Of a DNA stretch of 64,000 nucleotides, positions 1-19,238 are shown one piece after another; positions within the stretch are counted from its first letter, which is position 1, and the number at the start of each line of letters is the position of its first letter. Below the pieces are notes generated by a model. The model searched no databases. It was given only the letters and a program-made list of their open reading frames with translations, and was not told the origin of the DNA. The DNA is from Balneola sp. GTDB taxonomy: Bacteria; Bacteroidota; Rhodothermia; Balneolales; Balneolaceae. The position numbers were made by a program, and so were the translations under genes. The stretch covers positions 62,001-126,000 of the forward strand of contig JANQSE010000002.1 of assembly GCA_028284195.1 (NCBI GenBank), written 5' to 3'.

Positions 1-774
1 GATTTTGATGGAAAGCCTGCCACTGCCGTTTTGAAATGCTGTTTCTAAGGATCCTGCAATCCTTGTTATAGTAGCTTCATCGTCTTTCAAAACCAAACGA
101 TCTACCAATACTCTGAAATTATCGGGCGTAATTTTTTTTGGATCCAGGTCTTGATCTGTGAGATCTGTAATACTTTCATCTTTTAAATTAACAAGGCGGG
201 TAAATCCTTTCTCCTTTAAAACTTTCAGCTCTTCGGGGAGTTTCTTCTTCTCATGTTGAGGAACAGGAAACAGAATATAAAACCGAGTGCCTTCTTCCTG
301 AGATTTGTACAGCTCTTCAATTACGATCTTTGGAGTATCCTTTTTTACCTGCCTGCCTGAGATCGGAGAAATGGTTTTTCCAATTCGGGCAAATAAAAGC
401 CGAAGATAATCATAGATCTCGGTGGTGGTGCCAACGGTTGATCTTGGATTGTTTGATGTGGTTTTTTGTTGGATGGCCATTGCCGGCGAAATACCCTGCA
501 TAAAATCCACATCGGGTTTGTCCATTCGTTCTAAGAATTGGCGTGCATAACTGGAAAGGCTTTCCACATAACGGCGCTGCCCCTCTGCATAAATAGTATC
601 GAACGCCAAGCTGGACTTTCCTGACCCCGAAACCCCGGTTACAACGGTAAGCTTGTTTCTTGGAATTTCTACATCAACATTTTTGAGGTTGTGTGTTCTG
701 GCACCCTTTATAATTATCGGGCGTTCCAGCACTTCCTCTTTCGCTTCAATTGTAGCCGTTTCTTTTGGGGACAT
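1..774 (-). CDS. uvrA: Excinuclease ABC subunit A, N-terminal part (cut by window edge)
   Basis: UvrA is the DNA-damage sensor ATPase of nucleotide excision repair; it works as a dimer with UvrB in the cytoplasm. The 258 residues visible here begin with a short lead, then the '[19 protein letters not shown]' entry to the first ABC ATPase domain, and a Walker A (GVSGSGKSS) near residue 50. The UvrA-specific '[18 protein letters not shown]' and '[12 protein letters not shown]' segments follow. Where many UvrAs have the first zinc-module CxxC after 'LLFARIG', this protein reads SPISG; to my knowledge this Cys loss is usual in Bacteroidota. The rest of the gene lies left of the window. The ATG start follows a GAGAAT stretch. 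Identification is secure. Confidence 0.97.
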
Positions 775-963
775 ATTCTCCGTTTATATCGAACCCTGAA
801 TATAATGCTTTATCATTTTTGTTCTGATAAAATTATGAGCAAAAGTTTTTGACCATAGATTTTCTTCTGCAAAAAAATGGTTAACCGCAGCCCCATTAAC
901 GATTAACCATTAGTTTAATGCTACAATAAACACATCCTAGACTAAGTCTGGGATAACCCCCCG
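775..963. other. Intergenic spacer with an 8-bp inverted repeat
   Basis: This gap separates the uvrA start (to its left) from the end of the propeller-protein gene; both are read leftwards. It should hold the uvrA promoter, but I find no clear TTTG / TAnnTTTG pair. An 8-base perfect inverted repeat, ATGGTTAA / TTAACCAT, sits at 877-884 and 903-910 with an 18-base loop. A short palindrome AGACT-A-AGTCT lies at 939-949. Neither is followed by a clean T-run, so a terminator or operator role is only possible. Confidence 0.4.
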
Positions 964-3900
964 TCAATTCTGAATTTTTCCACTTTGAGCTTCAAATTCC
1001 TGGATGATGGTTTCGTATTTGCCATCCCATACCTTTTGCAGCTTTGCAAACTGAACATCCACTTTTGCCGCGAGGTCTTCATGCACTTCATACTGTTGTT
1101 TGGTTGGTCTTCCGTAACCTGTAGCTACAGTGCTTGCTAATGCGGCCAGTTTGTTATTCAGTTTTATCTTGAAGTTCAGTACATCCTGTGTGGCTTCTGC
1201 TTTGGTTTGCATCAATTCGTTTTCCACTTCAGACATTGCTTTTAGCATGGCTTTCGCTTTGTCTTGTAGTTCTTTGTTATCCTTAGCTTCTGCCATCATT
1301 TCGTTGATTTCATTACGAACTTCCCGAATGCGGTTGATTGTTTTATGAGTGGTATCCAGTTTCGCTTTTATGGTTTTTACCAGCTCAAACTGGGCGATGA
1401 AATCATCCTGAGATACCTCCGTTAAACGTGGATCTTTGACCACATCAAATGTTCGTTCGCCAACAACGTTTTCACCAATATGCATACGAACGGTGTACGT
1501 TCCGGGAATGGCTGTTGGGCCGGAAGTATTCCCTGCCCAAAGAATCTGAGTTCCTTTTAACCGGGTTACCGAAGGATATTGAAGGTTCCATACAAATTTG
1601 TTCAATCCTTTTTGATTTGTTACCACACTTGGACGAGTTTTGTTTTCATCTTCATAGAATGTACTTGATTCCCGTACCGGCCTGTCGTTTGCATCTTTTG
1701 TGCTGGAATAAGTTCGGATTGTATTTCCGCTTGGGTCGATAAATTCCAATTTAATTTCTTCATCCACTTCATTCCGGAGCGTATAGAAAATTACAGCACC
1801 ACGTTCTGGGTTTTGTCCGTTTGTTGAACCGGGACTGGTGAAACTTGGGCCACCAAATAAGTATGTTTTCTCTGGCTGGAAGAGGTGATTCTCTGCCTTT
1901 GCAATTTGCTCGCTCATTTGATGAAGTACTGGTAAATCGTCCAATATCCAGAACGAGCGCCCTTGAGTGGCTACGACTAAATCTTTATCCCGCTTATGGA
2001 TGGCGAGATCGGTGATTGGTACCGCCGGAAGATTTAATTGCAAATCCTGCCAGTTTTCGCCCGCATCAAAAGAAACATACATACCAGTCTCTGTTCCTGC
2101 ATACAATAAACCAGCTTTATTTGGGTCTTCACGAACTGCCCGGGTAAAGTCCATATCAGGGATACCGTTGGTGATTTTTTTCCAGCTTTTACCATAGTTA
2201 GTGGTTTTGTAGATCATGGGTTGGAAGTCGTTGAACTTATATCGCGTTGCAGCAAAATAAGCTGTACCGGCATCATGATGGGAAGCATCCAGAATACTTA
2301 TCATCGTTTCAGGTAATCCTTTTGGGGTTACGTTTTTCCAGGTTTGTCCATTATCTCTGCTGATGTGAATCAACCCGTCATCAGAACCAGCCCAAAGCAG
2401 GCCGGGTTCGATAGGAGACTCGACAAAAGTGAAAATAGTATTGTAATACTCTACAGAGGTATCATCTTTAGTGATAGGCCCACCGGACTCTTTTTGTTTT
2501 TCCTTATCATCGCGGGTCAGATCATCGCTGATAACTTCCCAGCTCATTCCTTCATCTGTGGAACGGTGTACATGTTGCGAGGTAGCATAAAGAATATTTG
2601 GATTGTGCGGAGATATCACAATCGGAAATGTCCATTGGAAACGGTATTTCAAATCCTCTGCTCCGGCTCCCATTGGGTTATCCGGCCAAACATCGATACG
2701 ATCGCTTAACCCAAGCTCTGCATCGTATTTGTTCAGATATCCACCATAACTTCCTCCATAAGTTACATTTGGATTTTCCGGGTCAGGAGCGATATAACCG
2801 CTTTCTCCACCAGCGACTCTCCACCAATCGTTTTCAGTGATTCCAAAACCATTCGTTCTGTTCTTGATCGCAAATGTGCTGTTATCCTGTTGAGCTCCAT
2901 ACACTAAATAAGGAAATTGGTTATCAACCGTAACCTGATAGATCTGAGCCGTTGCAGAGGTGTAGTACGATGACCACCCCTGGCCGCCATTATAGGTAAC
3001 CTGTCCACCACCATCATCACCAATTATCATACGTTGAGGATCACTTGGTGCTATCCATAAATCGTGATGGTCGCCATGTGGTGTTCCAATTCGGCTGAAT
3101 TTGCTTCCTCCATCTGTTGATTTCCAAAAACCAACATTAAGAACGTACACTCCATTTTCGTTTTTGGGATCGGCAATTACTTTAGAATAGTACCATGCTC
3201 GCTGGCGAAGGTTTCTGTCCGCACTTATTCTTTTCCATGTATCTCCGCCATTTTCAGATCGGAACAACCCTCCGCCTTTTTCGTTTTCTACAATTGCCCA
3301 TACACGATTTGAATTAGCAGGGGAAACTGCCACACCGATTTTACCCAGCAACCCTTTAGGCATCCCGGGATACTTTGATATTTCTTCCCATGTTTCACCA
3401 CCATCTTTACTACGAAACAAGCCGCTTCCTTCCCCGCCGCTACTCATTTCCCATGGGTTTCTATAAGCTTCCCAAAGTGCTGCAAATAAAATTCTTGGAT
3501 TGTTTGGGTCAACAGCTATATCAACTGCTCCGGTTTTTGAGTTTCTGGAAAGTACTTTCTTCCACGTGGTGCCTCCATCGGTTGACTTATAAACTCCTCG
3601 TTCATCACTGCCTTCTATTCCAAAGAGTTGCCCCATTGCGGCTACCCAAACTACATCATCGTTTGCCGGGTGTACTTCTATATCGCCAATAAACTGGCTT
3701 TGCTCCAACCCAATGTGTTTCCAGGTTTTTCCTGCATCGGTAGATTTATACATGCCATCTCCTGCACTCATATTTCCACGGATGTCGGTTTCTCCCATCC
3801 CAGCATAAATTACGTTTGGATCAGAAGGGGCTACAGTAATAGCTCCAACAGATCCCGTTTTAAAGAATCCGTCTGACACGTTAATCCATGAACTTCCTCC

Positions 3901-4164
3901 ATCAGTAGTTTTATAGACACCACCACCTGCGAATCCTGTATAAAAAGTATATGGTTGAGAATCATGCCCGGAAACAGCAACTGAACGGCCTCCCCGGTAC
4001 GGCCCAATGTTTCGGTATTTCAGATCTTTGAATAATTCTTTTTTATAAGCAGGGGAATCTGTTTCTGAACCATGTCCAAAAATCTGAGCGGTTGAAATGT
4101 CCATCAATAAAACAGAAAGGATTATAGTGAATGATGCGAAGGTGAATTTCTTGCATGTTTTCAT
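964..4164 (-). CDS. Secreted VPS10/sortilin-like BNR-repeat propeller protein
   Basis: A large exported beta-propeller protein of the kind often annotated 'glycosyl hydrolase' or 'VPS10 domain-containing'. A signal peptide (MKTCKKF then a hydrophobic core ending ISTAQ, about 27 residues) precedes many Asp-box repeats such as KSTDAGKTWKHIG, KSTDGGTTWKKV and RSKDGGETWEEI across roughly residues 50-720. Residues about 790-920 look like an immunoglobulin-like beta domain, and the last 150 are helical and charged. An upstream in-frame ATG at 4179 exists, but the start at 4164 gives a normal signal peptide. Asp-box propellers of this size bind peptides or glycans; the real ligand is unknown and no glycosidase catalytic residues are evident. 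The gene stands alone, with the S41 remnant upstream in the same direction. Confidence 0.85.
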   Translation of the reverse strand: MKTCKKFTFASFTIILSVLLMDISTAQIFGHGSETDSPAYKKELFKDLKYRNIGPYRGGRSVAVSGHDSQPYTFYTGFAGGGVYKTTDGGSSWINVSDGFFKTGSVGAITVAPSDPNVIYAGMGETDIRGNMSAGDGMYKSTDAGKTWKHIGLEQSQFIGDIEVHPANDDVVWVAAMGQLFGIEGSDERGVYKSTDGGTTWKKVLSRNSKTGAVDIAVDPNNPRILFAALWEAYRNPWEMSSGGEGSGLFRSKDGGETWEEISKYPGMPKGLLGKIGVAVSPANSNRVWAIVENEKGGGLFRSENGGDTWKRISADRNLRQRAWYYSKVIADPKNENGVYVLNVGFWKSTDGGSKFSRIGTPHGDHHDLWIAPSDPQRMIIGDDGGGQVTYNGGQGWSSYYTSATAQIYQVTVDNQFPYLVYGAQQDNSTFAIKNRTNGFGITENDWWRVAGGESGYIAPDPENPNVTYGGSYGGYLNKYDAELGLSDRIDVWPDNPMGAGAEDLKYRFQWTFPIVISPHNPNILYATSQHVHRSTDEGMSWEVISDDLTRDDKEKQKESGGPITKDDTSVEYYNTIFTFVESPIEPGLLWAGSDDGLIHISRDNGQTWKNVTPKGLPETMISILDASHHDAGTAYFAATRYKFNDFQPMIYKTTNYGKSWKKITNGIPDMDFTRAVREDPNKAGLLYAGTETGMYVSFDAGENWQDLQLNLPAVPITDLAIHKRDKDLVVATQGRSFWILDDLPVLHQMSEQIAKAENHLFQPEKTYLFGGPSFTSPGSTNGQNPERGAVIFYTLRNEVDEEIKLEFIDPSGNTIRTYSSTKDANDRPVRESSTFYEDENKTRPSVVTNQKGLNKFVWNLQYPSVTRLKGTQILWAGNTSGPTAIPGTYTVRMHIGENVVGERTFDVVKDPRLTEVSQDDFIAQFELVKTIKAKLDTTHKTINRIREVRNEINEMMAEAKDNKELQDKAKAMLKAMSEVENELMQTKAEATQDVLNFKIKLNNKLAALASTVATGYGRPTKQQYEVHEDLAAKVDVQFAKLQKVWDGKYETIIQEFEAQSGKIQN

Positions 4165-4263
4165 GGCAGACCTATACATTGTTTAGTTAGTTATTACAGA
4201 ATTTGAATAACTGAATGTATCGCAAGAGAAGCAAGCAATGGGTAAAAAGTTGTGAAGCCAGGG

Positions 4264-4703
4264 TTAGTTTTGGTTGTTAACTTCCTTTAAAATATTTTCC
4301 AACTTTAAAGCTCTTTCATCAGCCAGGTTTTGATATGGGCGTGGGGCAGCTTTTGCTGGATTGGCAGCCTGTCCGGTAATTAACTCAACGGCTTTAGCCA
4401 GCAAGGGATCATTCAAATCTCCTATGGGAACCGGTTGTAACAGGTTTTCTTCAACTTCATGATCGGGCGTTAAGTCATCTCGGAAATCAGTAGTGCCAAT
4501 AGAATTTGAGTATTTTAAAGACACGGGAACGATGGCATAATTGTTAGGGGGGGTAAAGCAGAACCCTCTGTAAGTACAAAAGAGCCATAGAGTTTGCCAA
4601 ATGCTGACCCCCCGATCTGAACCACATTCATATGAGGAATCAATCCATTTATAAGAAGTTCGCTCACTGATGCAGAGTTGCCCGTTGTTAAAAAATAAAC
4701 GTT
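4264..4703 (-). pseudogene. Decayed C-terminal fragment of an S41-family (C-terminal processing) peptidase
   Basis: Translation right after the tonB stop codon, in the same frame, gives 'NVYFLTTGNSASVSELLING' followed by 'IPHMNVVQIGGSAFGKLYGS'. This matches the catalytic-serine strand of Bacteroidota S41 peptidases (TxxxSASxSE). The frame breaks at a run of seven G on the plus strand (4547-4553). One frame over, the family tail resumes: NNYAIVPVSLKYSNS, then 'TPDHEVEEN', 'PIGDLNDPLLAKAVELITG', and a stop. About 145 residues remain; the N-terminal lipoprotein/PDZ part is missing. I read this as the 3' end of an S41 gene joined to tonB by a deletion, then frameshifted by one base. A long open frame that overlaps the tonB 3' end covers only the second half and is not a real gene start. 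A homopolymer sequencing error could explain the frameshift but not the truncation. Confidence 0.75.
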
Positions 4704-5525
4704 CTATCTGAATACGAAACGGAAAGTAATGGTTCCCCATTGTGCCTGTTGAGGAACACCGCTTGGCAGGCGTGAGAATTTCCAGCTTCTTAATGTTCGC
4801 TGTACTTCTTTCTCTAATTCGGGATTCATTTTCTTGAGGGGAATAATCAACCCAACCGAACCGTTTGGTTTTACCTGGAAGCGGACGGTGATCTTGGCTT
4901 CTGTATTTGCAGTATTTTGGGGAAGCGGCTGAACCATTGGGTCTCTTTCTATATTGCCTTCCCATTTTAATTCGTACGGCGCAGATTTTTCATCATCGGC
5001 TTCTGTACCTGCATCTACATTTGTTTCTCCGGTATTTCCTTTAACGTCTCCACTTTCCTTAGCTCCTTCACTGGTTTCAAGATTTTCTTTTGCCTGCGGT
5101 GGAATTTCAACCTCTTTTTTTGCTTCCTCTGTATTTTGCTTAGTTGGATCCACCACTTCAGTATCAGGTGTTTCCACCTTTTCTTCTTTAATTTGCTCTG
5201 TCTGATCCGGAAGGTCTACTTCTTTGGTAATTTCTTCGGTTGGGTTTTGGGGAACTTCCTCTGGTTTTGGAGTTTCCTCTACAGGTTCTTGTGGTTCTGT
5301 TTTTGAAGGATTAGGGCGTTGTGCTACTTCTTCTTCTTTTACCTCAGAAAATTCTGCCAAACTACCTGATTGGAACTCCCCAAATTCTACTTCAATAAAC
5401 GATGGGCGGAAATTCTGATTCATGTCTAATGTGTACCACAATGAAAACAGTACAAGGGCAATACTAACACTCAGCGTTACCGTTAGCGCAAATCCATCAT
5501 CTTTATTAAAGCGGGAATTTTTCAT
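4704..5525 (-). CDS. tonB: TonB-family energy transducer
   Basis: TonB links the inner-membrane proton-driven ExbB/ExbD motor to outer-membrane receptors. The 273-residue protein has one membrane span near residues 11-32, then a long Pro/Glu/Lys/Thr-rich periplasmic spacer (about 60-190). It ends with a TonB C-terminal domain containing 'ITVRFQVKPNGSVGL', 'ELEKEVQRTLRSWKF' and a final FRFVFR strand. It is the last gene of a tight minus-strand run (HU-SPOR, exbB, exbD, tonB) with gaps of a few bases, so it should be co-translated with its motor partners. The domain ends cleanly although an S41 fragment abuts the stop codon. Confidence 0.9.
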   Translation of the reverse strand: MKNSRFNKDDGFALTVTLSVSIALVLFSLWYTLDMNQNFRPSFIEVEFGEFQSGSLAEFSEVKEEEVAQRPNPSKTEPQEPVEETPKPEEVPQNPTEEITKEVDLPDQTEQIKEEKVETPDTEVVDPTKQNTEEAKKEVEIPPQAKENLETSEGAKESGDVKGNTGETNVDAGTEADDEKSAPYELKWEGNIERDPMVQPLPQNTANTEAKITVRFQVKPNGSVGLIIPLKKMNPELEKEVQRTLRSWKFSRLPSGVPQQAQWGTITFRFVFR

Positions 5526-5530
5526 AGTTG

Positions 5531-5947
5531 TTAAAAAGAGCTTTGTTCTGTAGCCATCAGTAAGTTAAGATCCAGTAGCTTTCCAATATTCATTACACGA
5601 ACGGCATCATCTACTTTTGCATCTTTATCTGCCCGCAATACTATCGTACTACTTTGGTTATTATTGCGTGCGGCGCGAATGGTAATGGCAAGAGATGCGC
5701 GTTCTGTAAGGTCACCGTTTACATAAAATTCTCCATCTTTTGTAATAGCTACCGAAATAAATTCATTCTGAGTGGTGGACCCTGACTCTGCTTTTGGAAT
5801 GTTCACTTTAATCCCAAAGTTAGTAACGAATGATGAGGTGAGCAGAAAAAAAATCAACAGCAAAAGCACAATATCTGTCAGCGATGACTGGGAAAAGAGT
5901 GAAAGGGGTGTTAAGCGTTTATCTCCTCTTCTGAAATCACGAGCCAT
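5531..5947 (-). CDS. exbD: ExbD/TolR biopolymer transport protein
   Basis: Inner-membrane partner of ExbB/TolQ that takes part in the proton channel. It is 138 residues long, with a short basic cytoplasmic N-terminus, one membrane helix from about residue 23, and a periplasmic domain of about 90 residues. The essential channel aspartate is present as D25 in 'SLTDIVLLLLIFF'. Length and layout fit the family. It lies 5 bases before tonB and 2 bases after exbB. Whether it serves TonB or a Tol-like function cannot be told from sequence alone; the adjacent tonB favours the former. Confidence 0.93.
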   Translation of the reverse strand: MARDFRRGDKRLTPLSLFSQSSLTDIVLLLLIFFLLTSSFVTNFGIKVNIPKAESGSTTQNEFISVAITKDGEFYVNGDLTERASLAITIRAARNNNQSSTIVLRADKDAKVDDAVRVMNIGKLLDLNLLMATEQSSF

Positions 5948-5949
5948 TG

Positions 5950-6657
5950 TTATGCCTGTTTTTTAGGTGCGGGTGATTGAAGAAGATCCATAAAATCGGC
6001 GGAGGCGTTCTCAAGTTCAAAAATGGAGCGGTTTATTTTGCCAAGCAGAAAGTTGTAAAACCCAAAGGCAATTAATCCTACAATTAATCCTGCAGCGGTG
6101 GTGATTAATGCTTCCCAAATTCCCCCGGCCAGCTCACTTGGGTTTACATTTCCCTGAAGTGACTGGATATCCATGAAAGCTTCTATCATACCTGTTACTG
6201 TTCCGGTAAACCCGATTAAAGGGGCTACACCGGCAATAGTTGCCAGCCAGTTCATTCGCTTTTCCAGGAAAAAAATTTCCTTTTTACCCGCATTGTCAAT
6301 GGCATCTTCAATATCCCGGATCGGCCGGCCGAGCCGTTTAATTCCTGCTTTAATAATTCGGGCAAGGGGTTTATCGAAATCATCGCAATACGTAATGGCA
6401 TCAGTTTGTTTTCCTGATTTAAGCATTCCTTTCACAGAATTAAGGAATTTGTCAGTATCGGTATGAGATCTGTTTAGTGCTCTCCAGCGTTCTACAATTA
6501 CATACATCGAAATCATGAAAAGAATAAAGATAGGGATCATTAAAACCCCGCCTTCAATTATTAAATCAAAAAGTGTAATGGTTTCTTCCTTTAAAGAAAG
6601 CGCCATGGAATCGGCTGCTGCTGTTGAGTCTTGGAGTAATAAAAGAAGGCTGTGCAT
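5950..6657 (-). CDS. exbB: MotA/TolQ/ExbB proton channel protein
   Basis: This is the proton-channel scaffold that works with ExbD to energise TonB or Tol. It has 235 residues from the ATG at 6657, with three membrane segments: 'IIEGGVLMIPIFILFMISMY' near the N-terminus and two later helices around 'APLIGFTGTVTGMIEAF' and 'EALITTAAGLIVGLIAFGFY'. A longer frame extends into the upstream HU-SPOR gene. The start at MHSLLLL is preferred because it lies 13 bases beyond the upstream stop and begins the natural N-terminus. It has no Shine-Dalgarno, as usual in this phylum. Confidence 0.93.
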   Translation of the reverse strand: MHSLLLLLQDSTAAADSMALSLKEETITLFDLIIEGGVLMIPIFILFMISMYVIVERWRALNRSHTDTDKFLNSVKGMLKSGKQTDAITYCDDFDKPLARIIKAGIKRLGRPIRDIEDAIDNAGKKEIFFLEKRMNWLATIAGVAPLIGFTGTVTGMIEAFMDIQSLQGNVNPSELAGGIWEALITTAAGLIVGLIAFGFYNFLLGKINRSIFELENASADFMDLLQSPAPKKQA

Positions 6658-15247: not shown

Positions 15248-16342
15248 TTATTTTTTGATAAAAGGAGGGCGTGTTATTGTTGCCTCTCCGGTTTTCTTTC
15301 GGATGGCAATGTGAATGGTATTGCCTTCAACAGCAAATTCTTTTTTCACATATCCCATCCCAATTCCTTTACCCAAAGTAATAGACATTGTTCCACTGGC
15401 AACTTCCCCGATTATGTTGCCGCTTTCATCCACAATTTCATATCCATGCCTTGGAATGTTGCGCTCATCGTTCATTACAAAGCCGACCAATTGCCGGGCA
15501 TTGCCTTCTTCTTTCTTTTTTAGTAAGGCTTCTCTTCCAACAAAATCACCTTTCTCGAATTTGGTGATCCAGCCTAATCGTGCCTCTAATGGGTGGGTGT
15601 TTTTAGTGATGTCATTTCCATACAGGGCAAAGCCCATTTCAAGGCGAAGGGTATCACGGGCACCCAGCCCGCAAGGCTCTATTCCGAATTCCTCACCGGC
15701 TTCAAAAATTGTGTTCCACACAGTTTCTACGTCCACACCCTCGGTTTTAAAATAAAGCTCAAAGCCTTTTTCTCCGGTATAGCCTGTTCCGGATATAATC
15801 ATATCAATGCCAGCCAGCTTTCCGGTTGTAAAGGCATAAAACCCAATACCAGCCATATCAACATCTGTAAGCTTTTGTAACGCCTGCGCAGATTTAGGCC
15901 CCTGAACTGCGAGTAAGGCATAATCATCCGAGCGGTTAACCAATTCAGCATTCATAGTATTCTGAGAACTGACCCAATCAAAATCTTTGTCAACATTTGC
16001 TCCGTTTACCACCAGCATGTATTCATTTTCAGTCAGCATATAAACGATCAAATCATCAACAATACCACCATCTTCGTAGCACATGCAAGAATATTGGGCT
16101 TTGCCGGGAACTAACTTTGAAGCGTCGTTCACCGTCACTTTTTGAATCAGATCAAGAGCGTATTCTCCTGAAATAAAAAACTCACCCATATGCGACACAT
16201 CAAAAACTCCCACATCGTTACGAATCGCTTCATGTTCAGTTTTAATGCCTTTGTACTGCACGGGCATTTCGAATCCGGCAAATTCAACAAGCTTTCCACC
16301 TTCTTTTTGATGAATGGAATGAAACGGGGTTTTTTTTGACAT
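15248..16342 (-). CDS. gcvT: Glycine cleavage system T protein (aminomethyltransferase)
   Basis: GcvT takes the aminomethyl group from lipoyl-GcvH, releases ammonia and passes the carbon to tetrahydrofolate. The 364-residue protein has the usual length and motifs: 'MPVQYKGIKTEHEAIRNDVG', 'FDVSHMGEFFI', 'SGTGYTGEKGFELYF', and 'PCGLGARDTLRLEMGFALYG', which contains the folate-site region. The C-terminal barrel carries 'GEVASGTMSITLGKGIGMGY'. No gcvH or gcvP is in the window, so the system is split on the chromosome, as is common. It is the first gene of the block that runs left to ftsK. Confidence 0.97.
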   Translation of the reverse strand: MSKKTPFHSIHQKEGGKLVEFAGFEMPVQYKGIKTEHEAIRNDVGVFDVSHMGEFFISGEYALDLIQKVTVNDASKLVPGKAQYSCMCYEDGGIVDDLIVYMLTENEYMLVVNGANVDKDFDWVSSQNTMNAELVNRSDDYALLAVQGPKSAQALQKLTDVDMAGIGFYAFTTGKLAGIDMIISGTGYTGEKGFELYFKTEGVDVETVWNTIFEAGEEFGIEPCGLGARDTLRLEMGFALYGNDITKNTHPLEARLGWITKFEKGDFVGREALLKKKEEGNARQLVGFVMNDERNIPRHGYEIVDESGNIIGEVASGTMSITLGKGIGMGYVKKEFAVEGNTIHIAIRKKTGEATITRPPFIKK

Positions 16343-16393: not shown

Positions 16394-16624
16394 ATGAATA
16401 CTAAAAAAAGATTGCATGCACATAGTTTCATTTATATTGCCGAGGCATCAATATCAGCGTGCAATGGAGGCATCTGTACAAACATGGTTGTTTGTTTTGG
16501 CCCCTGGTGGTATCCAGAGTACTATAATTTATATGCGTACCCAGACGAAGAGCATGTTAGCTGTGTTCATGATAGAGGAGTTGAAGATAATGGGTGTGTT
16601 ACATTTGTCTGCGGTGTTTTTTGA
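16394..16624 (+). CDS. Putative small Cys-rich exported peptide (NVEAL-like, possibly decayed)
   Basis: A 76-residue frame whose stop is 14 bases before the propeller lipoprotein start. After a short basic lead it reads 'IYIAEASISACNGGICT', then several more Cys, including a final 'VSCVHD...GC..FVC' pattern, seven Cys in total. Bacteroidota six-bladed propeller lipoproteins are often encoded beside small 'NVEAL' peptides that have a leader ending near N-V-E-A-L and a Cys-rich tail. 'IAEAS' followed by a Cys-rich tail is reminiscent of this. A proper hydrophobic leader is missing, so the 5' part may be eroded or the frame may be chance. An alternative frame (16416-16637) has no such pattern. 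Confidence 0.35.
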   Translation: MNTKKRLHAHSFIYIAEASISACNGGICTNMVVCFGPWWYPEYYNLYAYPDEEHVSCVHDRGVEDNGCVTFVCGVF

Positions 16625-16638
16625 TGTGGAAAATTAAA

Positions 16639-17889
16639 ATGAAGAATGGGCAATTTTTAAAAAATTTCTTTAAGCTTTTTGTGTTGAGCTTAGTTTTTTT
16701 TGGTTGCTTAGGTAATTCAGAAAAGAAGATTCACCCATCTCTACAAAAGCTTTCTAAATTTGAGCCGATAGACTTTTTTTTGGACATAAGTGCCGAATCA
16801 GAAGTAAAAGACTTGCTTGCTAGTTTGAATGATAGTTCGATTAAAGCTAAGATTAGATCAAAGAAAACAGATTCTTTATATACTCAGATTTTTGGAGTAA
16901 AGGAATTAGAGGTTGATGATTTTGGAAATATATACCTGACAAAAGATCAACTAAATTCTATTCTTGTATATAATAGTATGGGAGAGTTTATATATAAAAT
17001 TGGCAGAGGGGGGAGTGGACCAGGTGAGTTTTTAGAGATAAGAACGTTCGAATTTAATTCAGATTTTTCAACGTTGTATGTTCTTGATAGAAATGAGATA
17101 GAAATTTTTAAAATGTCTAAAAAAAATAAATTTGAGCCTGATAAAACATTAATTCATAATCTTAGTATGTCACATGATTTATGTACGCTTAATGATAGAT
17201 TATTTGTTCAAGGATTTAAATATGTTGCTACGGATTCAAATTCATTAAAAAAGGGAGTGTTTTCTCACGTTAAGACAACAAAATCTGTTCACGAAATTGA
17301 TATAAATACACAAGAAATCAATAATTCTTTTGGTCAACTATACACTTCTTATTCAGGTGCCCCTCCTCTTGATGCAATGCTCTCAAGCACCTTTTTAAGT
17401 TGTAATGAAGATACAGATACTATTGTAACAGCACTTAAGCACTTCGCTTATTTTTTTGGTTACGGATCATCTGGAGAGTTAAAGTGGACTTCAAAAATTG
17501 AAAATTTTAAATATCCGGCAATAGAAGAACTGGATATTAAATCCCCAACTGTAGGCATAAGGTTTGGGTCTGGGGGAGGAGAAATCTTTAACTTTCTTTT
17601 ACCGATACAAGAATATAGAAATGGGTTTTCAATAGTTCAGTTTGGTACCCAATTGACAAATCAATCGCTAAAAGAGTTTATAAAAAATAAAGATGCTTCT
17701 GAAACTGAGACAGATATAAAGCCTAATACCGTTTTAATTAATACTTCTAACGGTGAGCTAATGTATGATAATTCTTTTAAGGGGCGCTATATGAGTGCCA
17801 GTCAAAATTTCTTTGCAATTATTGGAGATGATGAAACTGATTTCAATTCATTTTCTTTACCTGAAGTGGTTATTTACGAAGCAAGATGA
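16639..17889 (+). CDS. Six-bladed beta-propeller lipoprotein
   Basis: 416 residues from the ATG at 16639 (a longer frame from 16594 adds an unlikely lead). The signal peptide ends at a lipobox with Cys23 (LVFFGC), predicting a lipid anchor. Propeller repeats follow, for example 'LEVDDFGNIYLTKDQLNSIL', 'YNSMGEFIYKIGRGGSGPGE' and 'NSDFSTLYVLDRNEIEIF', the NHL/6-bladed pattern seen in Bacteroidota surface lipoproteins (BF3164-like). The end overlaps the metzincin start by ATGA, so the two are translationally coupled. Codons are rich in AGA, ATA and AAT compared with the flanking gcvT and apbC, suggesting transfer. Ligand unknown. Confidence 0.75.
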   Translation: MKNGQFLKNFFKLFVLSLVFFGCLGNSEKKIHPSLQKLSKFEPIDFFLDISAESEVKDLLASLNDSSIKAKIRSKKTDSLYTQIFGVKELEVDDFGNIYLTKDQLNSILVYNSMGEFIYKIGRGGSGPGEFLEIRTFEFNSDFSTLYVLDRNEIEIFKMSKKNKFEPDKTLIHNLSMSHDLCTLNDRLFVQGFKYVATDSNSLKKGVFSHVKTTKSVHEIDINTQEINNSFGQLYTSYSGAPPLDAMLSSTFLSCNEDTDTIVTALKHFAYFFGYGSSGELKWTSKIENFKYPAIEELDIKSPTVGIRFGSGGGEIFNFLLPIQEYRNGFSIVQFGTQLTNQSLKEFIKNKDASETETDIKPNTVLINTSNGELMYDNSFKGRYMSASQNFFAIIGDDETDFNSFSLPEVVIYEAR

Positions 17890-18926
17890 AGTTGCTCAAT
17901 ACTAAAGCAGTTTTACTTTATCTTGCTTTATGCTGCATTATTATGGCCTGTAGTAAGGCTATGCCCAAAGGGAGTTCTCCTGGTTATTTTAACAATCATA
18001 CTGAATTGGCAATAGAAGAATTGGAGGTTTTACCTGTCATCTTTTTACCACAAAATGAAGCGGTTGACATTCATTCCCTGAGTGATGCGAAGCACAGACT
18101 TAAAACTATGCTTAATATTGCCCGGCAAACATACAAAGAGCTTTTAAATATTGATCGATCATTTCTTATATCGGATTCAGGGATAGAAATATATTCAGCT
18201 CAACAATCTTACGCCGATTATCAACAAACAAATCCCGACATTGCTCATCGAATCGTCAAAGAGTTATTCGAATGGCAAAATGATGATCGTATGTTGTCGA
18301 ATAAACTATATCTGGTGATTGTTGTAAATCAGCATGACAATAATTTAGCAAAAGTGGGTGGTGGCAGAACATTTAATGGCCAGCCTGGCAGTGGTGGAGC
18401 TATTGTTCTGATGGAATATTCGTCTCTAGTTAATGATCAGCCTTATCCCTTTTTATCTACTTTAATTCATGAATTAGGCCATGGGTTTGGTTTAAGCCAT
18501 GTTGATTGTTTGGGCTATGATATGTCTACAAATCCGTCAGTAATGTCATATAATTTGGATCATCATTCAAATGGTTCGGAATTAGCTGATGTTGATCTGC
18601 AATTTAATCCGGAAGAATTGTTTATTCTTTCCCAAAATGTAATGGCTTTCCCGGATTTTCAATTCAATCCAGCCTTGCATAATCCAGGCGGAAAAAATCT
18701 TAATTCAATAGAAAGTTGTTATTTAGGCCGCATGACTGATTTTATCGGGCCCATTTCACAAGAAGATGGAAAAGGGTATGAACTGTTTTTTAATGGTCGT
18801 AAAGTGAATGGTGTTGAAGCTGTTTTTTATACATTTTCACAAGCAAAAAAAAATTGTGAATGGAACGTAAACAATAAGCCTAATACTCAGGTTGAATGCC
18901 GTTTTAATGGTGTAAGCATTAAATAA
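17886..18926 (+). CDS. Lipoprotein metzincin metalloprotease
   Basis: 346 residues. The signal peptide ends at Cys22 (IIMAC), predicting a lipoprotein. A full metzincin zinc motif HELGHGFGLSH occupies residues 195-205 (ligands H195, H199, H205; base E196), with the Met-turn S-V-M220-S-Y 15 residues later. The prodomain-like 60-190 segment and a C-terminal 'GYELFFNGRKVNGVEAVFYT' domain have no name I recognise. The gene overlaps the propeller lipoprotein by 4 bases, so the pair is probably made together and displayed on the same membrane. The substrate is unknown; the small Cys-rich peptide upstream or the propeller's ligand are candidates. Confidence 0.8.
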   Translation: MKLLNTKAVLLYLALCCIIMACSKAMPKGSSPGYFNNHTELAIEELEVLPVIFLPQNEAVDIHSLSDAKHRLKTMLNIARQTYKELLNIDRSFLISDSGIEIYSAQQSYADYQQTNPDIAHRIVKELFEWQNDDRMLSNKLYLVIVVNQHDNNLAKVGGGRTFNGQPGSGGAIVLMEYSSLVNDQPYPFLSTLIHELGHGFGLSHVDCLGYDMSTNPSVMSYNLDHHSNGSELADVDLQFNPEELFILSQNVMAFPDFQFNPALHNPGGKNLNSIESCYLGRMTDFIGPISQEDGKGYELFFNGRKVNGVEAVFYTFSQAKKNCEWNVNNKPNTQVECRFNGVSIK

Positions 18927-18931
18927 GTTAG

Positions 18932-19123
18932 TTATGTCATGTCTTCAATAAAGTTTTGATAACTCAAGGGTAAGCCAGGCTTTTTGAAACGATATCTGGA
19001 ATAATATTGAACCCAAAAATTCCTTGATAATCCCTCAGTTTCTAATAACAATGCGAGAACGTGCTTACACGGCTTCAACTGCTTCCTCATATACTGGCAC
19101 TGCCCAAGTAAAGCAGGAGACAA
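18932..19123 (-). pseudogene. Probable decayed SWIM zinc-finger gene fragment
   Basis: This fills most of the 359-base gap before apbC. Read on the minus strand, a 63-codon frame contains 'CQYMRKQLKPCKHVLALLLE' and 'QYYSRYRFKKPGLPLSYQNF', then stops. The C-x-H after a Cys-rich lead, followed by ALLL, resembles the second half of a SWIM zinc finger (CxC...CxH). The first half seems to lie in a neighbouring frame just upstream (KIVSCFTW), with stop codons between, as expected for a frameshifted remnant. There is no upstream gene body in this gap. The homology is by eye and the call is tentative. Confidence 0.35.
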
Positions 19124-19238
19124 TCTTGGTCAGCGCAAATGTTGCAATAGAGTTGTATCTGTTACTTCAGGAGGAACTAAAAAATAAAATATTTAAAAGG
19201 GCAAACTTAATTGCTATAACACTGAATTGAATTCTCCC

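What the first reader, a model, noticed from the sequence alone, without database searches (positions are those of the whole stretch)
16394..18926. Peptide-propeller-metzincin lipoprotein cassette
Three linked plus-strand frames lie between unrelated housekeeping genes: a small Cys-rich frame with an N-V-E-A-L-like segment (IAEAS), a six-bladed propeller lipoprotein 14 bases later, and a lipoprotein with a complete HELGHGFGLSH/Met-turn metzincin core that overlaps by ATGA. The two lipoproteins would sit on the same membrane. NVEAL-type peptides and BF3164-like propellers are known to co-occur in Bacteroidota, but a protease coupled to them is new to me. The simplest model is that the propeller binds the peptide (or a host/neighbour ligand) and the protease matures or destroys it. 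The region is more AT-rich than its surroundings, which points to transfer.
Basis: partly seen in the sequence, partly recalled or inferred. Interest (0 to 1): 0.62.

Follow-up and report, generated by a model that had tools for sequence, protein, structure and literature searches.

The report
Protease grafted into propeller-peptide operon
A known-type gene pair (a small cysteine-rich peptide and a propeller-shaped surface lipoprotein) normally travels with a thioredoxin-like gene, but in this genome that third gene has been split by an unrelated metalloprotease that seems to have taken over its lipoprotein leader, so the three-gene protease cassette is a one-off rearrangement and not a conserved system.

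Summary
The three frames are real. The propeller matches Pfam DUF5128. The third gene is an intact metzincin (AlphaFold pLDDT 88). The small frame is a genuine Cys-rich gene with a 67%-identical homologue beside a 57%-identical propeller in a sister genus, at the same gcvT-mrp site. The protease cassette is not a conserved system. In relatives the order is [Sec-exported Cys-rich peptide]-[propeller lipoprotein]-[thioredoxin-like protein], found in five families of the class; no other propeller among 133 has a neighbouring metzincin, and none of 40 homologous metzincin loci has a propeller. In the window the thioredoxin-like gene is broken. Its C-terminal 85 codons survive, with two stops, directly after the metzincin (E=1.9e-9). 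The metzincin's first 43 residues (lipoprotein signal plus disordered tether) match that gene's N-terminus without gaps, and metzincin homology begins at residue ~44. So the third gene is most likely a chimera made by a metzincin landing inside the thioredoxin-like gene. The peptide has lost its signal sequence and would not be exported. No NVEAL match was found. Best reading: a hijacked, partly decayed peptide/propeller/thiol-enzyme module, now a propeller plus a lipid-anchored protease. Peptide processing by the protease is unsupported.

The parts
16394..16624 (+). Cys-rich peptide gene, 76 aa, 6 Cys; 5'-truncated, lacks a signal sequence
   Evidence: 67% aa identity to G024 peptide; purifying selection dN 0.25 / dS 1.65; nucleotide homology only from 16413
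16639..17889 (+). Six-bladed propeller lipoprotein, 416 aa, HP motif after the lipobox
   Evidence: PF17170 DUF5128 E=3.2e-10 over cut-off; 57% identical propeller at same site in G024
17886..18014 (+). Leader and tether (codons 1-43) of the third gene, probably derived from the thioredoxin-like lipoprotein gene
   Evidence: Ungapped match to G024 thioredoxin-like protein 1-43 with lipobox Cys22 in register; post-Cys score 34, 0 of 1e5 shuffles, max 8 among 76 other lipoproteins; top hit of 160,466 positions; residues 26-41 disordered in model
18015..18926 (+). Metzincin domain with complete zinc site (18468-18500) and Met-turn (M220 at 18543), plus C-terminal Cys-containing region
   Evidence: 40-45% identical homologues starting at residue ~42-46; AF2 pLDDT 88; OgpA Z=15.1
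18946..19200 (+). Remnant of the thioredoxin-like gene (aligned to residues 107-191 of the G024 protein), two in-frame stops
   Evidence: the genome search E=1.9e-9; local score 125 vs shuffle maximum 45 in the same frame

Best explanation
The locus is one altered copy of a three-gene envelope module that in relatives reads: Sec-exported Cys-rich peptide, six-bladed propeller lipoprotein, thioredoxin-like lipoprotein or membrane protein. SHOWN: the peptide and propeller have orthologue-like partners at the same chromosomal site in a sister genus, followed there by the thioredoxin-like gene. SHOWN: the last ~85 codons of such a thioredoxin-like gene lie, broken by two stops, directly behind the window's metzincin. 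STRONGLY SUGGESTED: a metzincin domain entered that gene, replacing about codons 44-106 and keeping its first ~43 codons, so the protease now uses the old lipoprotein signal and flexible tether and stays translationally coupled to the propeller by ATGA. SHOWN: the window peptide frame has no signal sequence. INFERRED for the ancestral module: the thiol protein (one invariant Cys, several members with CxxC) helps form or shuffle the peptide's disulfides and the propeller binds the folded peptide at the envelope. INFERRED for the present state: the peptide is not exported and the working product, if any, is a propeller plus a lipid-anchored protease; the peptide is probably a relic.
For: Same-site synteny gcvT-[peptide, propeller]-mrp in G024. 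Thioredoxin-like gene directly after 16 of 37 HP propellers and 0 of 71 other propellers. Remnant at 18946-19200. N-terminal match in register, coinciding with where metzincin homology starts and with the disordered tether of the model. Metzincin family unlinked to propellers in 40 loci and no metzincin beside the other propellers. Signal sequence missing. Module with signal-bearing peptides in five families of the class.
Against: The N-terminal leader match is short (21 informative residues, 33% identity; only 41% nucleotide identity in codons 23-43) and was noticed before it was tested; a profile of all the thioredoxin-like proteins does not extend past the signal peptide. The thioredoxin assignment is weak: one member hits Thioredoxin_8 at 1.9e-4, and most hit nothing. 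No close relative carries the chimera, so selection on it cannot be measured. The function of the ancestral module is untested.
Confidence: 0.72

Rival explanations
1. Functional three-part cassette: the propeller binds the peptide and the metzincin matures or destroys it.
For: All three frames are open, closely spaced and on one strand; catalytic site complete; peptide under past purifying selection.
Against: Peptide has no export signal, so it would not meet a lipid-anchored envelope protease. Protease linkage is unique to this genome. Module elsewhere uses a thioredoxin-like gene.
Confidence: 0.1
2. Separate insertion, no fusion: a whole metzincin lipoprotein gene landed between propeller and thioredoxin-like gene and the latter decayed; the N-terminal match is chance.
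For: Short match; low nucleotide identity in codons 23-43; some metzincin relatives carry their own leader sequences.
Against: Ungapped in-register match with lipobox Cys at residue 22 in both, best of 160,466 positions; N-terminal half of the thioredoxin-like gene is otherwise missing; extra ~16 residues absent from aligned metzincin homologues.
Confidence: 0.17
3. Assembly artefact joining unrelated sequences.
For: A unique gene in a draft assembly of 19 contigs.
Against: Flanks match congeners; fusion keeps frame and the remnant follows in the expected order; similar GC.
Confidence: 0.04

Closest known systems
DUF5128 / 6-bladed beta-propeller lipoproteins (PF17170)
   Same: Window propeller scores over the family cut-off
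   Different: Belongs to a subset with an HP motif after the lipobox that tends to follow Cys-rich peptides and precede thioredoxin-like genes
NVEAL/NVEALA peptides of Bacteroidota (PF14055)
   Same: Small Cys-rich peptide gene directly before a propeller lipoprotein (association recalled, not tested)
   Different: No profile match; no signal sequence in the window copy
Metzincin peptidases: OgpA and Amuc_1438 O-glycopeptidases of Akkermansia, adamalysins (M12B), fragilysin
   Same: Metzincin fold and zinc site; best structural match OgpA Z=15.1, 182 residues, 20% identity
   Different: Own sequence family scattered in Planctomycetota, Proteobacteria, SAR324 and Saprospiraceae; the window's lipoprotein leader and tether are not shared by the aligned relatives

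Membership tests
NVEAL peptide (PF14055) | Profile match | tested here: not met
   No hit; the Bacteroides control rings
NVEAL peptide (PF14055) | N-terminal export signal before the motif | tested here: not met
   Frame starts 51 bp from divergent gcvT; no hydrophobic segment; homology breaks at the signal
DUF5128 six-bladed propeller | Score above Pfam gathering cut-off | tested here: met
   40.1 vs 22.9 bits
TolB_like / BF3164-type propeller (PF15869) | Score above Pfam gathering cut-off | tested here: not met
   17.2 vs 29.2 bits
Metzincin peptidase | HExxHxxGxxH zinc site and Met-turn | tested here: met
   Invariant in 14-sequence alignment, H195-H205 and M220
Metzincin peptidase | Metzincin fold | tested here: met
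   AF2 pLDDT 88.2; OgpA Z 15.1, adamalysins Z about 11
Metzincin peptidase | Zinc-dependent proteolysis | not testable with these tools
   Needs an assay
Thioredoxin-like third gene of the module (remnant in the window) | Sequence homology to the family | tested here: met
   E=1.9e-9 and score 125 vs shuffle maximum 45
Thioredoxin-like third gene of the module (relatives) | Thioredoxin fold | tested here: inconclusive
   Thioredoxin_8 1.9e-4 in one member, Thioredoxin_2 weak in two; invariant Cys51 and Pro136

The most novel reading that the evidence does not exclude
The wider class holds an undescribed envelope module in which a dedicated thiol protein folds an exported disulfide-rich peptide that a propeller lipoprotein binds (a ligand-receptor or toxin-immunity pair), and in this genome the thiol protein was swapped in place for a tethered protease, turning a peptide-folding partner into a peptide-cutting one.
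Probability: 0.15. Interest if true: 0.65.

Novelty: new variant of a known kind. Interest (0 to 1): 0.42.

Why it matters
It corrects a plausible protease-peptide story into a documented gene replacement, and it shows that many peptide-propeller pairs in this class come with a thiol protein, which gives a concrete and testable role (disulfide formation of the peptide). It is also a neat case of a protease acquiring lipid anchoring and operon coupling by landing inside a resident lipoprotein gene. No paper in the held library names the peptide family or DUF5128 in this context.

Tried and rejected
NVEAL profile (no match). Metzincin relatives by single-sequence search in genome and viral contigs, plasmids and 146+394 genomes (nothing useful); a degenerate motif scan then found 40 loci, after a narrower one found none in viral contigs. 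DNA alignment of the metzincin start with the thioredoxin-like gene (not above shuffles), so the chimera rests on protein-level and positional evidence. tblastn missed the remnant because of its stops. Downstream spacer has no DNA-level match to the sister locus. Junction repeats: only 5-mers. Promoter/terminator scan at chance level. PADLOC and PHROGs: nothing. Literature searches: nothing on this module.

Full report
Observation. The three plus-strand frames are as described: 16394-16624, 16639-17889 and 17886-18926, with a 14-base gap and an ATGA overlap. They lie between a divergently transcribed gcvT (start at 16342) and mrp (19286). The propeller is DUF5128 (40.1 bits, cut-off 22.9) and only sub-threshold for TolB_like. 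The third protein passes Reprolysin_3. The small frame hits no informative family, and the NVEAL profile does not match it.

The small frame is a gene, but a truncated one. Among 146 relatives one genome of a sister genus (G024) encodes a 67%-identical peptide next to a 57%-identical propeller, at the same place between gcvT and mrp. Codon-position differences (13/16/31) and dN 0.25 against dS 1.65 show purifying selection since divergence. DNA homology begins at window 16413. In G024 the preceding 53 bases encode MGKRFILAFSILLLASFG, a typical signal sequence, though in another frame, so the G024 copy also carries a lesion or an assembly error there. The window has no counterpart: only 51 bases separate the frame from gcvT, and the first residues (MNTKKRLHAHSFIYIAEAS) are not a signal sequence. 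The G024 peptide has eight cysteines and the window six; the two missing ones were lost together, as expected of a disulfide pair (inference).

The module in relatives. Upstream and downstream neighbours were listed for 133 propeller ORFs in the fetched loci, a few loci being held twice. Propellers with an HP motif after the lipobox, to which the window and G024 proteins belong, have a signal-bearing small ORF with at least four C-terminal cysteines upstream in 16 of 41 cases, against 2 of 100 non-propeller genes (Fisher 2e-8) and 7 of 78 other propellers. A thioredoxin-like gene follows directly in 16 of 37, against 0 of 71 other propellers (duplicates removed). The HP class was defined after looking, and ORF calls are mechanical, so these figures are indicative. 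Full or partial modules occur in five families of the class (f1, f4, f7, f8, f13 in the handles). The third protein has one invariant Cys in YIGSSxC, several members a CxxC, and an invariant Pro. Pfam support for thioredoxin is weak, so 'thioredoxin-like' is tentative.

What happened in the window. Searching the window's genome with the G024 thioredoxin-like protein gave one hit, window 18931-19194, E=1.9e-9, with two stops. In that frame the stretch 18946-19200 aligns to residues 107-191 of 192, with score 125 against a shuffle maximum of 45. So the thioredoxin-like gene once stood where it stands in G024, and the metzincin now occupies its front part. The metzincin's first 43 residues line up without gaps with those of the G024 protein. 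The lipobox Cys is residue 22 in both, and SKAMPKGSSPGYFNNHTELAI faces TLFPSKNSIPNYFSQRSELVL (score 34; 0 of 100,000 shuffles; the best of 76 other lipoproteins scored 8). The two stretches are each other's best match among 160,466 positions. Homology to other metzincins begins at residue 42-46 in most alignments, and the structure model is disordered at 26-41 and has its first strand at 47. The simplest account is a metzincin domain landing inside the thioredoxin-like gene, keeping its lipoprotein signal and tether and losing about codons 44-106. The DNA-level match of the leader is not significant and a family profile does not extend past the signal peptide, so the fusion is probable rather than proven; the displaced gene itself is firmly shown.

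Origin of the metzincin. A motif scan of 84,980 species found 40 loci. All encode relatives, the nearest 45% identical in a deltaproteobacterial MAG (L137) and a Negativicutes MAG (L140), many in Planctomycetota. None of those loci has a propeller or thioredoxin-like gene. In 394 genomes of the window's phylum only the window's genome has a strong match. The model (pLDDT 88) is a metzincin closest to Akkermansia O-glycopeptidases OgpA (Z 15.1, 182 residues, 20% identity) and Amuc_1438, then adamalysins. A shared fold does not show a shared substrate.

Site. The gcvT-mrp gap is a variable spot: 0.2 to 2.1 kb in seven congeners, holding a RelBE-like pair, small lipoproteins or nothing. All these fillings are 30-35% GC, so AT-richness does not single out the window insert.

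Mechanism. For relatives I infer that the peptide is exported, its disulfides are made or corrected by the thiol protein, and the propeller binds it. For the window I infer that this no longer operates: export signal and thiol protein are both gone, while the propeller and a lipid-anchored protease remain intact. Whether the protease acts on any peptide is open.

Limits.

Noticed in passing
L045 (G024:C63), about 1899-2382 on the - strand: A signal peptidase I gene (TIGR02227 E=9e-29) sits between the Cys-rich peptide and the propeller of another module copy: a dedicated protease of a different kind.
   Followed up: partly
L123 (congener G006:C11) 512-6374: Three propellers accompanied by double-glycine-leader Cys-rich peptides (TIGR04149/NF047798-like leaders just under cut-off) next to what looks by eye like a VKOR-DsbA fusion: same peptide + propeller + disulfide-enzyme logic with another export route.
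   Followed up: partly
L093 (G020:C1): Two to three tandem Cys-rich peptides before one propeller and thioredoxin-like gene, suggesting peptide diversification.
   Followed up: no
gcvT-mrp gap in L056-L060: Variable spot with a RelBE-like toxin-antitoxin pair and duplicated small lipoproteins in congeners.
   Followed up: partly
L038 10849-13874: In G024 the same site also holds a transposase-like ORF, a second propeller broken by a stop and a truncated thioredoxin-like gene: the site is decaying there too.
   Followed up: partly
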